Assembly (NCBI GenBank): GCA_016197155.1
Contig: JACPWF010000004.1
Coordinates: 1-35,528 of the forward strand
Direction: 5' to 3'
From: Candidatus Omnitrophota bacterium
Lineage (GTDB): Bacteria; Omnitrophota; Gorgyraeia; 2-02-FULL-51-18
Length of the DNA stretch: 35,528 nucleotides
Below, one piece after another: positions 8-5,207 of this stretch. A model generated the notes under the pieces. The model was not told the origin of the DNA. It was given only the letters and a program-made list of their open reading frames with translations, and ran no database searches. The stretch's first letter is position 1; each line of letters opens with the position of its first letter. Made by a program: the position numbers and the translations under genes.

Positions 8-3000
8 TTGATTGACGGACGAACGACGAACCGTCTTTCTGATCTTTTGCTTGCGCTATATATTTCATCCACCAACCCGGTCGCGCGGGAAGGAATTATC
101 AAAATAGATCCCGAAAAATTTTATGAGTATGTGGTATCGACTTTTGGAACATCCTGGCCTGAATTTCTTTCGGAGACCAGCCGCTACAGAAAAGAAATCA
201 ATCCTTCTTCCCCCGCCCGGCTGGCGGATTTTTGGAATACGGTTAAGGCGGCCTGGGGGAGGTTTTTGGTCAGGGCCGGTTTTGTCAAAGAGCCCCGTAC
301 ACTCCCCTTCCTTGAAAAAGCAAGAGCCGTTGACAAAAGGATAAGGCTGTTCGGAACAAAGTCCTGGCTGACCGATACGGAAAACAGCGGCTGGGTGACC
401 GTGAACGGAGTGGCGCACTTCCAGTGGAAAAGCGTCAACTCCGCTTCCAATGCCTGGCTCCGCATGAATCTCAAAACGGGCGACACACACATTTTTTATG
501 CCAACAGCGCCTCAAAAGCCATTCATCCTGATTTCCATATTTTTGACATCGCCCGCGATTCAGACGGCAATGTTCTGATAAATACCCAACCCGATCCCTT
601 CACGGGCATACCGGACAAATTTGCCCGGACGGAACCTTTTTCACCGTATCAGCCGGCTCCCAGGAAACCCGTTGTTCGAGGGCGCTTTCTTCAACCCTCT
701 TTTGCGGGCGCTGGCGCGCGGGCCGCCACTAGAGCGCCGGCGGACGCGTCGGCTGCGGGCGCGCGCCTGCCTGCCGGACAGGCAGGGATGGCGGGGATGA
801 AGAATGGGAATGAGAAAAAAACCCACATTCTGACTCGCGCGGCGATTTGGACTGCGCTGACATTTGCGACCTCGGGAGGCGCAATTTTGTGGGCGATGCA
901 TGAGACACTCCCCCAAGCTCACCCCTATGTTGTTCTGGTCGCCGTTGCGGTTTTTTTAATCGCCGTAAACTTGGGCTATCAACTTTACCAAGTCCGAAAG
1001 CATGATCTTCAGGAGATCGAAAAAGCGTTTCGGGAGGTTAAAAAGGCTCATCATGAAACCGAAGAGGCTCTTGAGGGGGAAAGGGCGGCTCGCCGGGAGG
1101 CCGAACAGCTTGCCCTGACGGACCCGCTTACGGGACTTCTTAACAGAAGGGGTTTGGAGAATAGAGTGGCAATTTTATTTCCCGTTGCCAAACGTCATCG
1201 AGGGAATTTGCGCATTGCCGTGGCGGTTCTTGATATTGATAATTTTAAAAAAATTAACGATAAAGAAGGACATCCAGCGGGAGATAGAGTATTGGAAGAG
1301 ATCGCAAGACTTCTGAGGAGCGAGCTCCACCGCGAAACCGATGTCATTGCGCGCCTCGGCGGAGAGGAATTTTGCGTGGTTTTTATATCGCAAGATTCGG
1401 ACAAAGATGAGGATTTTTATTTGAATTCTTTAAAAAAACTTCTGAGGGCGCACCCGGAAAACGTGACGTATTCGATAGGGACTGCTCTTCTCGAAGCCGA
1501 GACCGTGGATATAACAGAACTTATCAACCAAGCGGATATATCGCTGTATAGGGCCAAGAAAGCCGGTAAAAACCAGATTTATGATCCGAAAAAAGGCTTT
1601 ATTAAAACAGAGGATGAACCGGAACCGAAAGCCGCCCGGATGGCGGGGGAAAGCGGTGGTCAGGAGTCAGTAGACAGTCGACAGGCCGAAACAAAAGAAT
1701 TTGCCCGCAGGCTGGCTGAGGGGTTGGAAGTGCGGCTTGACAAGCTGAGACTGATCATCAGCGCCCTAAAAGAAGGGCCGTTGGATGATGCGGATCAACA
1801 GAAGCTGAAGGAGCTGGCGGCGTTCGTGACAGTTGAGAAGCATAACGACAACATTGTTGAGTTTGTGAAAGGTTTTGAGCGAGAAAATAGATCGGATGGC
1901 CAACAGGCTTTGATCAACGTCATCACATACGGCGGAGAGTGGGCGGATTTTGATATCGTCAACGGACTGGCGCCGTTGGGGTTTGGCGAGATTGCCTTAA
2001 TGGAGAGAACATTAAACAAAGGTTACCTGTCATATATTCAAACATCATTTCAAAGAGCCGAAAAGGTCTTGGCTTATCTTAGAATTTATTCACAATCAAA
2101 CATTGCTCTTCCGATTGACGGGGAGGGTAAGGTGAATGGTGAGAACTTGCAGAAATTAAAAGATGCATATGACCAAGCCGTGCGAAGAGGTGATGTTTGG
2201 CCCACTCAATTTTCTTCCTCCGCCCGCCCGGCCGCCGGCGCGGAGCCTTCGGTAGGGGCGCCATTGACGGCGCCCACAGACACGCGTCACACGGGGTCAG
2301 ACCCCCTGCGGGAGTTGTCCGGACATTCTGAGGTTGTTTCCCCGGGGGGTCAGACCCCACCAGAGATTGCTTCGGCGCCTGCGGCGCCTCGCAATGACAC
2401 GGAAGAAGGGGCGCGGAGTTTTTTAAGCGCCGCGAGGCTGGGGGCGGTGTCAGGCGCTCAAACCGATTTCCTCGAGAGTCACGCGCCGCAGGGTCGTAGC
2501 ATCACCGAAGCGCTTCAGCGCGTCCAGGATTTCTATGCCCGCAATCTTGCCTTTTTTGTCGAAGTCCACCGCCACGCCCTCGGTCACTTGTTTGGACGTA
2601 ACAGTCCCTTCCTCAAAACGGATGTAAAGGGCGTCAACCTCGGAATCGTAGGTAATTCTCATATTTTATCTCCCTCAAAAATAGTACACGTAAACCGTGA
2701 CGATTACAATCTCATTCGGCGCCTCAATGAAAATGGGCCTTACCTGCTTGGTTTTGTAATGTTTGCCGTTCCAATTTTGATTATTATAGGGAAAATCTTT
2801 TCTGCATTGCAACCGGCCCAGATCGGCATTCTCCCATTTGGATTGACGAACGGCATTTATAATCTCATCTTCATCGGCGCCGCGGCGGTCCAACTGCATT
2901 TCAGCGTGGCGGCTAAGCCGAATGGGTTTAGTCATGTCCCAACCGTAGCAAATACCCCCCATAAAGTCAATTTTACTACCCTACATCAAAAATTATCTTC

Positions 3001-4195
3001 CGCCGCCCGTCTGGCCGCCGGCGCACCGCCTTCCGTAGGGGCGCCATTGATGGCGCCCACAAACACGCGGCATCAGACCCCGGCAAAGATTGCTTCGGCG
3101 CCTGCGGCGCCTCGCAATGACAGGGGAGGGGCGCGGAGTTTTTTAAGCGCCGCGAGGCTCACGGCGGTTTTGCCGCATCTCAGCGTGGCCAGCGCCGCGG
3201 AGATCGGGTCGGAAACTCAGGCGATTTTGGCGGAACTGTATGTGAGCCGCGCCGCGCGCCTTTCGGAAACCGATGTCCTGCCGCTCGAAGTCTCTCTTGG
3301 CCGGTATGTCAATGTCCGTTACGCGAAGCCGCAAGGCGCCCGCGCGGCACACTTCGAACTTTTGGATATGAAAAACGGTGGAATCGTCTACGGTGAAGTG
3401 CCCATGAGCGGAGAGATGTTGAGACAGGCCATCGCGGCTCGTTTGGCGGAGAAATACAGACAGGCCCCAGCGGCCCAACCCATAAAAGGTGAGGGGCCGC
3501 TTGCGGAGGCCGCGGAGCTTTACCGGCAGGAGGAGGTCGGCGCCCGTTTTGCCGCCAAGATGCTGGGTGAATTTGCGCAAACCCTCCCGCCCGGCGTTCA
3601 TGCTGTGGAGGTTTTATTTTTGGAAAGCGGTCAGGATGGTAGCGCTTATCAATCGGCGAGGGACAGACTTAAGAGGCAAATTGAAAATCTTAATGGCCGC
3701 GGAGCCCGGCTGAGCGTTTCTTTCAAGAGCGTCAAATTTGATCAAGGCCGCTTTGTCACGGACGCGGGAGAGGAGATCAGTCCGGCGCCCCGCGGCGTTC
3801 CCAGAGTGCTGATGGGCGCGGTCCGGAATCAGGAAATTCTGAGCGAAGGCGCCCGTTTAGGCGCGTCGTTTTTGGCGTTGGGAGAAGCGGATTCGAGGGA
3901 GGGCCGTCGCGTCATGCCCTACTTCGCCTCGCTTGTCGCCGCAGTCATGACGCCTTTCGAGAGCCGATACGATGAGGATTCGCCTTTGTCGCGGCTTTTA
4001 AGCCGGATCATCTATCGCGGCGAGGGGATCGTCAATGCCGAAATCTTTAAGAATTGGATTCTCAAAATCAATACCGCCGCCGATGCGCTCAGGAGATATC
4101 GGCAGGAACTTGCCGTCAAGCCGCTCAGCGCGTTCCTCAGCGAAGCCGTTTATTCAGCTTACACCCAGCTCGTCGCCGCCGGGACTGCGGCGTGA
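8..4195 (+). CDS. Large mosaic GGDEF (diguanylate cyclase) protein; may be truncated at the window start; repeat-rich middle and uncharacterised C-terminal region
   Basis: ORF track 1395 aa. TM-like segments (AAIWTALTFATSGGAILWAM; PYVVLVAVAVFLIAVNLGYQLY), coiled coil, then TDPLTGLLNRRG...VLDIDNFKKINDKEGHPAGDRVL...RETDVIARLGGEEF (GGEEF active-site variant with RxxD I-site five residues upstream). Begins with TTG at the window edge. Confidence 0.75.
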   Translation: MIDGRTTNRLSDLLLALYISSTNPVAREGIIKIDPEKFYEYVVSTFGTSWPEFLSETSRYRKEINPSSPARLADFWNTVKAAWGRFLVRAGFVKEPRTLPFLEKARAVDKRIRLFGTKSWLTDTENSGWVTVNGVAHFQWKSVNSASNAWLRMNLKTGDTHIFYANSASKAIHPDFHIFDIARDSDGNVLINTQPDPFTGIPDKFARTEPFSPYQPAPRKPVVRGRFLQPSFAGAGARAATRAPADASAAGARLPAGQAGMAGMKNGNEKKTHILTRAAIWTALTFATSGGAILWAMHETLPQAHPYVVLVAVAVFLIAVNLGYQLYQVRKHDLQEIEKAFREVKKAHHETEEALEGERAARREAEQLALTDPLTGLLNRRGLENRVAILFPVAKRHRGNLRIAVAVLDIDNFKKINDKEGHPAGDRVLEEIARLLRSELHRETDVIARLGGEEFCVVFISQDSDKDEDFYLNSLKKLLRAHPENVTYSIGTALLEAETVDITELINQADISLYRAKKAGKNQIYDPKKGFIKTEDEPEPKAARMAGESGGQESVDSRQAETKEFARRLAEGLEVRLDKLRLIISALKEGPLDDADQQKLKELAAFVTVEKHNDNIVEFVKGFERENRSDGQQALINVITYGGEWADFDIVNGLAPLGFGEIALMERTLNKGYLSYIQTSFQRAEKVLAYLRIYSQSNIALPIDGEGKVNGENLQKLKDAYDQAVRRGDVWPTQFSSSARPAAGAEPSVGAPLTAPTDTRHTGSDPLRELSGHSEVVSPGGQTPPEIASAPAAPRNDTEEGARSFLSAARLGAVSGAQTDFLESHAPQGRSITEALQRVQDFYARNLAFFVEVHRHALGHLFGRNSPFLKTDVKGVNLGIVGNSHILSPSKIVHVNRDDYNLIRRLNENGPYLLGFVMFAVPILIIIGKIFSALQPAQIGILPFGLTNGIYNLIFIGAAAVQLHFSVAAKPNGFSHVPTVANTPHKVNFTTLHQKLSSAARLAAGAPPSVGAPLMAPTNTRHQTPAKIASAPAAPRNDRGGARSFLSAARLTAVLPHLSVASAAEIGSETQAILAELYVSRAARLSETDVLPLEVSLGRYVNVRYAKPQGARAAHFELLDMKNGGIVYGEVPMSGEMLRQAIAARLAEKYRQAPAAQPIKGEGPLAEAAELYRQEEVGARFAAKMLGEFAQTLPPGVHAVEVLFLESGQDGSAYQSARDRLKRQIENLNGRGARLSVSFKSVKFDQGRFVTDAGEEISPAPRGVPRVLMGAVRNQEILSEGARLGASFLALGEADSREGRRVMPYFASLVAAVMTPFESRYDEDSPLSRLLSRIIYRGEGIVNAEIFKNWILKINTAADALRRYRQELAVKPLSAFLSEAVYSAYTQLVAAGTAA
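766..786. repeat. Short inverted repeat CCTGCCTG-ccgga-CAGGCAGG, in-frame in the GGDEF ORF
   Basis: 8-bp perfect arms 766-773/779-786, translated as LPAGQAG; resembles a G+C-rich palindromic repeat often seen translated as PCLPAGRQAG-like peptides. Confidence 0.6.
2293..2305. repeat. 13-nt odd palindrome GGGGTC-A-GACCCC, copy 1
   Basis: Exact match; identical to 2346-2358. Confidence 0.85.
2346..2358. repeat. 13-nt odd palindrome GGGGTC-A-GACCCC, copy 2
   Basis: Exact match; a partial third copy (tcagacccc) is at 3073-3081 in R2. Confidence 0.85.
2450..2662 (-). CDS. DUF2283 family protein (antitoxin-like partner)
   Basis: MRITYDSEVDALYIRFEEGTVTSKQVTEGVAVDFDKKGKIAGIEILDALKRFG: typical DUF2283 sequence; lies 12 nt downstream of the DUF4258 ORF on the same strand. 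Confidence 0.85.
   Translation of the reverse strand: MRITYDSEVDALYIRFEEGTVTSKQVTEGVAVDFDKKGKIAGIEILDALKRFGDATTLRRVTLEEIGLSA
2675..2935 (-). CDS. DUF4258 domain protein (toxin-like)
   Basis: MTKPIRLSRHAEMQLDRRGADEDEIINAVRQSKWE...VRPIFIEAPNEIVIVTVYVYYF matches the DUF4258 pattern. The ORF track extends to 2962, but the second Met (2935) fits the promoter better. Confidence 0.8.
   Translation of the reverse strand: MTKPIRLSRHAEMQLDRRGADEDEIINAVRQSKWENADLGRLQCRKDFPYNNQNWNGKHYKTKQVRPIFIEAPNEIVIVTVYVYYF
2942..2970 (-). promoter_or_regulatory. Predicted sigma70-type promoter for the DUF4258-DUF2283 pair
   Basis: Minus strand: TTGACT (2970-2965), 17-nt spacer, TACGGT (2947-2942), 6 nt, then ATG (2935). 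Confidence 0.5.
2996..3159 (+). repeat. Long direct repeat copy R2
   Basis: Second copy of R1 (see 2213-2439); the pair bounds a 556-nt interval holding the DUF4258/DUF2283 pair. Confidence 0.9.
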
Positions 4196-4230
4196 GGGCG
4201 GGGAGAGTGGATGGCGGATAAAAAGCGTGG

Positions 4231-4236
4231 TACAAT
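4231..4236 (+). promoter_or_regulatory. Candidate -10 box TACAAT of the second toxin/antitoxin-like pair
   Basis: TACAAT followed 7 nt later by an in-frame GTG (4244). The -35 at 17 nt is poor (TGGATG). Confidence 0.3.
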
Positions 4237-4243
4237 GCTGTTC

Positions 4244-4579
4244 GTGACGGAGAAGACATCCGAGGATTTTAAAGTCATTGTTGATTTCCAGGGAAAATCG
4301 ATAAAAGTTTGGAATTATACGATAGAACACATCAAACAATCGCATCCTGAAATTGAAGACCCTTTCTCGTTCGTCGAGGCCATTTTAAAAAACCCTGTTC
4401 TGATCACGGAAGATGAATTGCCCGGCACAGTGATCTATCATAAGAGGGCGCAAAAACCGCTCGTGCATGTGGCTTATGTTCAGGTCGAAAAGGGAATGGT
4501 AAAGTCGGCGCATATCAGCGATAGGATTAAAGGAGGCAACGTGGTCTGGTTTATAGAGTCAAAGGATCTCCTTCGATGA
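4244..4579 (+). CDS. PBECR-like / RelE-fold nuclease-like toxin candidate
   Basis: ...YTIEHIKQSHPEIEDPFSFVEAILKNPVLITEDE...VIYHKRAQKPLVHVAYVQVEKGMVKSAHISDRIKGGNVVW resembles phage-Barnase-EndoU-ColicinE5/D-RelE-like nuclease domains. ORF track start is 4211 (ATG). Confidence 0.6.
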   Translation: MTEKTSEDFKVIVDFQGKSIKVWNYTIEHIKQSHPEIEDPFSFVEAILKNPVLITEDELPGTVIYHKRAQKPLVHVAYVQVEKGMVKSAHISDRIKGGNVVWFIESKDLLR

Positions 4580-4791
4580 AAATCTCTTACGACGATCTCA
4601 CGGATACTCTGTACGTTTTTTTTGACAGTCAGGCCGATACGATTGCCAGAGACATGGGCAACGGGCTTTTACTTAAATACCAAAAGAAAAACAACAAAGT
4701 CGTTGGGGCCGTCGTCCATGATTTTGAATCCCGTTTTAAGATGCGCCAATCTTCCTTTGTTGAAATACCGGCAAATCCTGCCTCCGCATAA
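4576..4791 (+). CDS. DUF2283-like protein (antitoxin-like partner)
   Basis: MKISYDDLTDTLYVFFDSQADTIARDMGNGLLLKYQKKNNKVVGAVVHDF; ATGA overlap with the upstream ORF indicates translational coupling. Confidence 0.7.
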   Translation: MKISYDDLTDTLYVFFDSQADTIARDMGNGLLLKYQKKNNKVVGAVVHDFESRFKMRQSSFVEIPANPASA

Positions 4792-4865: not shown

Positions 4866-5207
4866 ATGATTAAAATTATTTCTAAGAGAATTTCTCCGGA
4901 AAAATTAAAAGAATTCCTCGGGAAACCTTTTTCGGACATGGTGAAGTTTGTCGTCGATATCGAGAAAGGCGTTGTCGCGCTGGGCGGGGAGCTCCATTCG
5001 GATGCCGAAGCGCTTTTGCTGGAGAAGGGCTGTCTGCAAAAAAATTTATGGGGCGGCAATCTTTATCCCGATTTGCCGGGTGAGGGACGGATCGTTTACA
5101 CTTCCATGATCAACATCCGCCCGTCGGCGGGCAACCGTTCGATGGAGTTAAAAGACGAGAAGGCCCGCGCCCGCGTCAAAATTGTTTTGGATAAATTAAT
5201 TTTATGA
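4866..5207 (+). CDS. DUF5674 family protein
   Basis: Signature DMVKFVVDIEKGVVALGGELHSDAEALLLEKG...LWGGNLYPD...SMINIRPSAGNRSMEL. Confidence 0.8.
   Translation: MIKIISKRISPEKLKEFLGKPFSDMVKFVVDIEKGVVALGGELHSDAEALLLEKGCLQKNLWGGNLYPDLPGEGRIVYTSMINIRPSAGNRSMELKDEKARARVKIVLDKLIL

What the first reader, a model, noticed from the sequence alone, without database searches (positions are those of the whole stretch)
4211..4791. Second DUF2283-type two-gene module immediately after the mosaic ORF
A PBECR/RelE-like nuclease candidate followed by a DUF2283-like ORF with an ATGA overlap repeats the toxin-first gene order of the antisense DUF4258-DUF2283 pair 1.2 kb upstream. The two modules have different toxin candidates but the same partner family, so DUF2283 may be a shared antitoxin platform with interchangeable toxins.
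Basis: partly seen in the sequence, partly recalled or inferred. Interest (0 to 1): 0.6.

Follow-up and report, generated by a model that had tools for sequence, protein, structure and literature searches.

The report
PBECR-type toxin with DUF2283 antitoxin
Two tiny overlapping genes in an uncultured bacterium look like a self-poison and its antidote; the antidote family (DUF2283) is paired with two branches of RNA-cutting poisons, and each branch of antidote stays with its own branch of poison instead of swapping partners.

Summary
ORF 4211-4579 (or from GTG 4244) overlaps by ATGA a DUF2283 gene at 4576-4791, the same toxin-first order as the antisense DUF4258-DUF2283 pair at 2450-2962. The genome is Candidatus Omnitrophota. 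The first ORF is a diverged PBECR-type (BECR-fold) RNase candidate: sub-threshold Pfam PBECR3/2, a confident AlphaFold model, PBECR-like conserved His and Ser/Thr, and best structural neighbours among phage polyvalent and MuF proteins. In 285 Omnitrophota genomes every assessable PBECR-type homologue (27/27) sits beside DUF2283, while 41/107 DUF2283 genes lack a recognised toxin, and several toxins are broken beside intact DUF2283: the signature of a toxin-antitoxin pair. The same module is on Synechocystis, Chondrocystis and Leptospira plasmids and on viral contigs. 'Interchangeable toxins' fails as stated: PBECR-type and DUF4258-type toxins are one superfamily joined by intermediates, and the DUF2283 and toxin trees share the same deepest split with no exchange in 71 pairs. 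What varies is the DUF4258 side: about half of those toxins lack DUF2283, and most of those read have an MqsA-like partner. Toxicity and neutralisation are untested. No paper in the library mentions DUF2283.

The parts
4211..4579 (+). Toxin candidate, PBECR-type BECR-fold endoRNase (122 aa; alternative start GTG 4244). Conserved H40 and H45 at the N-terminal helix, S99 (S/T in all 14 aligned relatives) in the penultimate strand, K107, G109, W113.
4576..4791 (+). DUF2283 antitoxin candidate (71 aa), ATGA overlap with the toxin gene; predicted five-strand sheet plus C-terminal helix, no DNA-binding domain seen.
2675..2962 (-). DUF4258-type toxin candidate (95 aa), first gene of the antisense pair; distant homologue of the 4211-4579 product.
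2450..2662 (-). DUF2283 antitoxin candidate (70 aa), second gene of the antisense pair; belongs to the DUF4258-partner clade of DUF2283.

Best explanation
4211-4791 is a type II toxin-antitoxin module in toxin-first order. [quoted passage not shown] The second, translationally coupled through ATGA, makes a DUF2283 protein that binds the toxin and blocks it. DUF2283 has no recognisable DNA-binding domain, so control is more likely through co-translation and stoichiometry than through classical autoregulation. The antisense pair at 2450-2962 is a paralogous module from the other branch of the same toxin superfamily, with its own DUF2283 clade, so the two modules are probably insulated from each other. 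Shown: gene order, conservation, partner dependence, co-divergence, and sequence links between the toxin branches. Predicted: the fold. Inferred: RNase activity, RNA target, neutralisation by binding.
For: 27 of 27 assessable PBECR-type toxins in 285 genomes are beside DUF2283; at least 4 of 28 toxins are broken or truncated next to an intact DUF2283. 66 of 107 DUF2283 genes have a superfamily toxin directly upstream on the same strand, median gap 8 nt; the iterative search gave 0 hits among 3886 shuffled decoys. Congruent toxin and DUF2283 trees (toxin split SH-aLRT 99, 1 change vs about 17 when shuffled; zero errors also with 12 further pairs) and Mantel rho 0.41 vs permutation maximum 0.17. 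AlphaFold toxin model pLDDT 81, pTM 0.73; best BFVD matches are phage polyvalent proteins and a MuF-C protein, prob 0.87-1.0, the setting in which PBECR was defined (PMC5512222). Same module on plasmids of Synechocystis, Chondrocystis and Leptospira and in viral contigs. Probable toxin-antitoxin fusion in one open frame in G014.
Against: No toxicity or binding data. ORF1 is below Pfam's cut-offs and no solved structure matched significantly (BrnT only at rank 49, E 1.2). The best viral structural E-value is only 1.7e-3. 41 of 107 DUF2283 genes lack a recognised toxin neighbour, and on Thermus plasmids DUF2283 stands next to DUF5647 or other genes. S99 and H101 in the window replace the commoner T and Y.
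Confidence: 0.8

Rival explanations
1. Shared antitoxin platform: DUF2283 is a generic neutraliser onto which unrelated toxins are repeatedly swapped.
For: DUF2283 is next to PBECR-type, DUF4258-type, HNAFFDR-type and, on an Acidiphilium plasmid, a RelE/ParE-annotated ORF.
Against: All recruited toxins fall in one superfamily found with no decoy hits; DUF2283 and toxin trees share one split with no exchange in 71 pairs; most finer toxin subtypes are also single or nearly single clades on the DUF2283 tree.
Confidence: 0.08
2. The pair is not a toxin-antitoxin system: ORF1 is a non-toxic RNA-processing or RNA-binding protein and DUF2283 is its accessory subunit.
For: No activity data; some PBECR relatives such as Mu gp30 are reported as inactive (PMC5512222); vertical retention upstream of aconitase in two genera.
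Against: Patchy distribution (26 of 285 genomes), plasmid and viral occurrence, toxin decay beside an intact partner and no toxin seen without its partner fit an addictive pair better; the putative catalytic residues are conserved.
Confidence: 0.13
3. DUF2283 acts mainly as immunity against PBECR-type RNases injected by phages; the paired toxin is secondary, which would explain solitary DUF2283 genes.
For: PBECR domains occur in phage-injected polyvalent proteins (PMC5512222); many DUF2283 genes have no recognised toxin neighbour; the best structural matches of the toxin are phage polyvalent proteins.
Against: Solitary DUF2283 genes are also expected after toxin loss; most DUF2283 genes belong to the DUF4258 branch; no injected PBECR was linked here to a DUF2283-carrying host.
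Confidence: 0.07

Closest known systems
PBECR domains (PF18810, PF18812; Iyer et al. 2017, PMC5512222)
   Same: Predicted BECR fold with a His at the N-terminal helix and Ser/Thr late in the sheet; best structural matches are phage polyvalent and MuF-C proteins.
   Different: Scores below Pfam's cut-offs; stands alone in a bacterial two-gene module with DUF2283, whereas the paper describes PBECR mainly in phage polyvalent proteins, with solo forms in phages.
DUF4258-DUF2283 pairs (present in this window and on several plasmids; not named as toxin-antitoxin in the records seen)
   Same: Same gene order, same partner family, homologous toxin superfamily.
   Different: Different toxin branch and different DUF2283 clade; no exchange between branches seen.
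DUF4258-MqsA/YgiT modules (DUF4258-MqsA fusions in PMC11980606)
   Same: DUF4258 toxin of the same superfamily, two small genes.
   Different: The partner carries CxxC zinc-finger motifs and is unrelated to DUF2283.
BrnTA
   Same: BECR-fold RNase toxin in toxin-first order (PMC11980606).
   Different: No BrnT or BrnA match by sequence; only a very weak structural match to BrnT 3u97.

Membership tests
DUF2283 (PF10049) | Pfam score above gathering cut-off | tested here: met
   P0002 26.3 vs 23 bits; P0003 66.6 bits
PBECR (PF18810/PF18812) | Pfam score above gathering cut-off | tested here: not met
   P0001 17.1 vs 30 and 16.1 vs 27.1 bits
[quoted passage not shown]
   AlphaFold: E20-24 E30-34 H35-44 H51-60, then five strands, pLDDT 81; a prediction only
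[quoted passage not shown]
   H45 invariant and S/T99 in all 14 aligned relatives; H45 lies one residue after the modelled helix, H40 lies inside it but is not invariant
PBECR (PF18810/PF18812) | Structural neighbours among phage PBECR-bearing proteins | tested here: inconclusive
   Top BFVD matches are polyvalent and MuF-C proteins, prob about 1, but E 1.7e-3 to 0.1
DUF4258 (PF14076) | Profile match of the toxin at 4211-4579 | tested here: not met
   No match for P0001, though 6 of 14 PBECR-type relatives match weakly
Type II toxin-antitoxin system | Two small co-directional adjacent genes conserved as a pair | tested here: met
Type II toxin-antitoxin system | Toxin gene not retained without its antitoxin | tested here: met
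   27 of 27 assessable PBECR-type genes have DUF2283; the 28th is at a contig end
Type II toxin-antitoxin system | Toxicity and neutralisation by protein binding | not testable with these tools
   Needs an experiment
Type II toxin-antitoxin system | Antitoxin with DNA-binding domain and operon autoregulation (common, not universal, so not decisive) | tested here: not met
   DUF2283 model is a small sheet plus helix; no HTH/RHH/AbrB match
BrnTA | BrnT (PF04365) and BrnA matches | tested here: not met
   No such Pfam match

The most novel reading that the evidence does not exclude
PBECR-DUF2283 is an old, partner-locked toxin-antitoxin lineage related to the RNase domains that phages inject inside polyvalent proteins, and solitary DUF2283 genes serve as anti-toxins against such injected RNases.
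Probability: 0.1. Interest if true: 0.7.

Novelty: new variant of a known kind. Interest (0 to 1): 0.42.

Why it matters
It proposes a function, antitoxin, for DUF2283, a widespread family on which the paper library holds nothing, and ties PBECR RNases, so far known mainly from phage injection proteins, to bacterial and plasmid toxin-antitoxin pairs. Two paralogous modules 1.2 kb apart in one genome give a ready system to test insulation against cross-talk, and the matching trees turn 'shared antitoxin platform' from a guess into a tested claim, with a negative answer at the level of the two branches.

Tried and rejected
PDB searches by sequence with single proteins and profiles gave nothing usable. 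Structure search of the toxin in PDB gave only chance-level matches, mostly CorA, with BrnT at rank 49. PADLOC and NCBIfam: no relevant match; PHROGs only families of unknown function. The genome-contig scan with the toxin alignment found three loci, all Omnitrophota; the first alignment was not conserved enough to search with. Two viral-contig scans returned no relative. Promoter and terminator scan at background level. tblastn found no similarity between the upstream mosaic ORF and the stretch upstream of the sister-genus module, so a shared 'mosaic ORF plus module' unit was rejected. The third DUF2283 of this genome (C35) has no recognisable toxin; tblastn of a sister-genome candidate gave no hit.

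Full report
OBSERVATION. The second is a DUF2283 protein above Pfam's cut-off. The first has only sub-threshold matches, both to PBECR (PBECR3 E 0.0053, PBECR2 E 0.014). The antisense pair, DUF4258-like 2675-2962 then DUF2283 2450-2662, is also confirmed and toxin first. The window is a contig of a 1.43-Mb genome whose relatives are Candidatus Omnitrophota.

CONSERVATION. Relatives of P0001 in 285 genomes of the phylum, one more from GTDB contigs and one on a viral contig all have DUF2283 directly downstream, apart from two weak matches that lie in unrelated proteins (L009, L010). Against the sister genus both proteins are 72-76% identical (pN 0.157 and 0.150) while synonymous sites are saturated: purifying selection on both. 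The module lies upstream of the aconitase gene in both genera.

DUF2283 SURVEY. PF10049 gave about 107 places in 62 of 285 genomes; I analysed 107. An iterative search seeded with P0001 over 3886 real frames plus 3886 shuffled decoys recruited 72 frames and no decoy, reaching the window's own DUF4258 protein at the sixth round. 66 of the 107 DUF2283 genes have such a toxin directly upstream on the same strand, median gap 8 nt. Hits not beside a DUF2283 are duplicates of loci already counted, split toxins, one pair with a 186-nt gap, or a probable toxin-DUF2283 fusion in one open frame (L058). Of the other 41, at least four have another small upstream ORF family (SHLEFRL...ITIHPI), and 14 have no small upstream ORF.

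PARTNER ASYMMETRY. A PBECR-type profile found 28 places in 26 of 285 genomes. In 27 DUF2283 is adjacent; the 28th is at a contig end. Six toxins look broken or truncated (in-frame stops, frameshift or short fragment), at least four of them next to an intact DUF2283. Toxin decays, partner persists, toxin is not seen without partner: expected for an addictive pair.

ONE TOXIN SUPERFAMILY. Among 14 PBECR-type proteins, 6 match PBECR2, 4 PBECR3, 1 MuF_C and 6 DUF4258. All 11 of an intermediate TAYW/TAYLTS-type group match DUF4258 and one also PBECR2. hhalign: PBECR-type vs intermediate 94.7%, E 6e-8; intermediate vs the window's DUF4258 type 97.2%, E 3e-11; the two extremes directly, 0.8%.

CO-DIVERGENCE, NOT EXCHANGE. 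Toxin and DUF2283 distances correlate (Spearman 0.41; maximum of 2000 permutations 0.17). The midpoint split of the DUF2283 tree puts 22 rows on one side, all with PBECR-type toxins, and 44 on the other, all DUF4258-type by inspection (my regular-expression labels left some rows as 'other' and mislabelled one). The same split appears in the separately built toxin tree with SH-aLRT 99 and one change against about 17 expected. With 12 further pairs (plasmids of Synechocystis, Chondrocystis, Leptospira, Microvirga, Rhodothermus, Geminocystis, Athalassotoga and Cyanobacterium, three viral contigs, one further Omnitrophota) both trees keep the split with no error and the same seven extra pairs on the PBECR side. 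Caveats: DUF2283 gives only about 50 columns, many forks are unresolved, the pairs were chosen by a recognised toxin, and the clade labels came from the first DUF2283 tree.

WHERE INTERCHANGE OCCURS. Of 59 DUF4258 places in the same genomes 30 are next to DUF2283 and 29 are not; 10 of 12 of the latter that I read have a CxxC...CxxC[GS]E protein downstream, i.e. MqsA/YgiT-like by motif only. DUF4258-MqsA fusions are in the literature (PMC11980606). It is the DUF4258 toxin that has alternative antitoxins.

STRUCTURE. The P0001 model (7 sequences) has pLDDT 81 and pTM 0.73, ordered from about residue 20: two helices followed by five strands. Best BFVD matches are phage polyvalent proteins (ddrB-ParB, LPD3, PolyVal ART) and a MuF-C protein, prob 0.87-1.0 but E 1.7e-3 to 0.1. 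[quoted passage not shown] here H45 is invariant and position 99 is always S or T. Nothing significant in PDB. P0002: pLDDT 82.5, five strands and a helix; best PDB match a GatB-YtpR model chain, TM 0.61, E 0.07, only a lead.

MECHANISM. Most likely ORF1 cleaves RNA and stalls growth, and ORF2, made from the same message through coupled translation, binds and blocks it. Gene pairing, dependence and co-divergence are shown; the fold is predicted; toxicity, target and neutralisation are inferred.

NOVELTY. No paper in the library mentions DUF2283 (COG5428 also absent), and the plasmid records read do not name these PBECR-like or DUF4258 pairs as toxin-antitoxin systems. The kind of system is known; the PBECR-DUF2283 pairing and its partner fidelity appear undescribed within what I could search, which excludes most subscription journals.

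Noticed in passing
window 2208-2448 and 2991-3168: Direct repeats (82, 63 and 42 nt, 87-93% identical, spacing 720-783) flank the antisense DUF4258-DUF2283 pair; the long copies occur only here in the genome, short pieces elsewhere. Suggests the pair was inserted into, or duplicated with part of, the GGDEF-containing ORF 8-4195.
   Followed up: partly
L058 1054-1707 (G014:C10): A DUF4258-type toxin and DUF2283 lie in one open reading frame, a possible natural toxin-antitoxin fusion.
   Followed up: partly
L165-L171, L173, L174, L176: In the same phylum DUF4258 toxins not next to DUF2283 mostly precede a CxxC zinc-finger (MqsA/YgiT-like) gene.
   Followed up: yes
L023, L025, L033, L051, L056 (upstream of DUF2283): A further small ORF family upstream of some DUF2283 genes (pattern SHLEFRL...IITIHPI) has no Pfam match and may be another branch of the toxin superfamily.
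   Followed up: partly
L119, L128 (Thermus plasmids): DUF2283 genes on small Thermus plasmids stand beside DUF5647 and other genes, not beside a recognised BECR toxin; in pTT8 the DUF5647 gene is on the opposite strand.
   Followed up: no
window 4576-4791 (AlphaFold model): Best PDB structural neighbour of DUF2283 is a chain of a GatB-YtpR model (9a77_B, TM 0.61, E 0.07), hinting at a shared small-sheet fold.
   Followed up: no
window 4866-5207: A DUF5674 protein (E 6.5e-33) of unknown function directly after the module.
   Followed up: no
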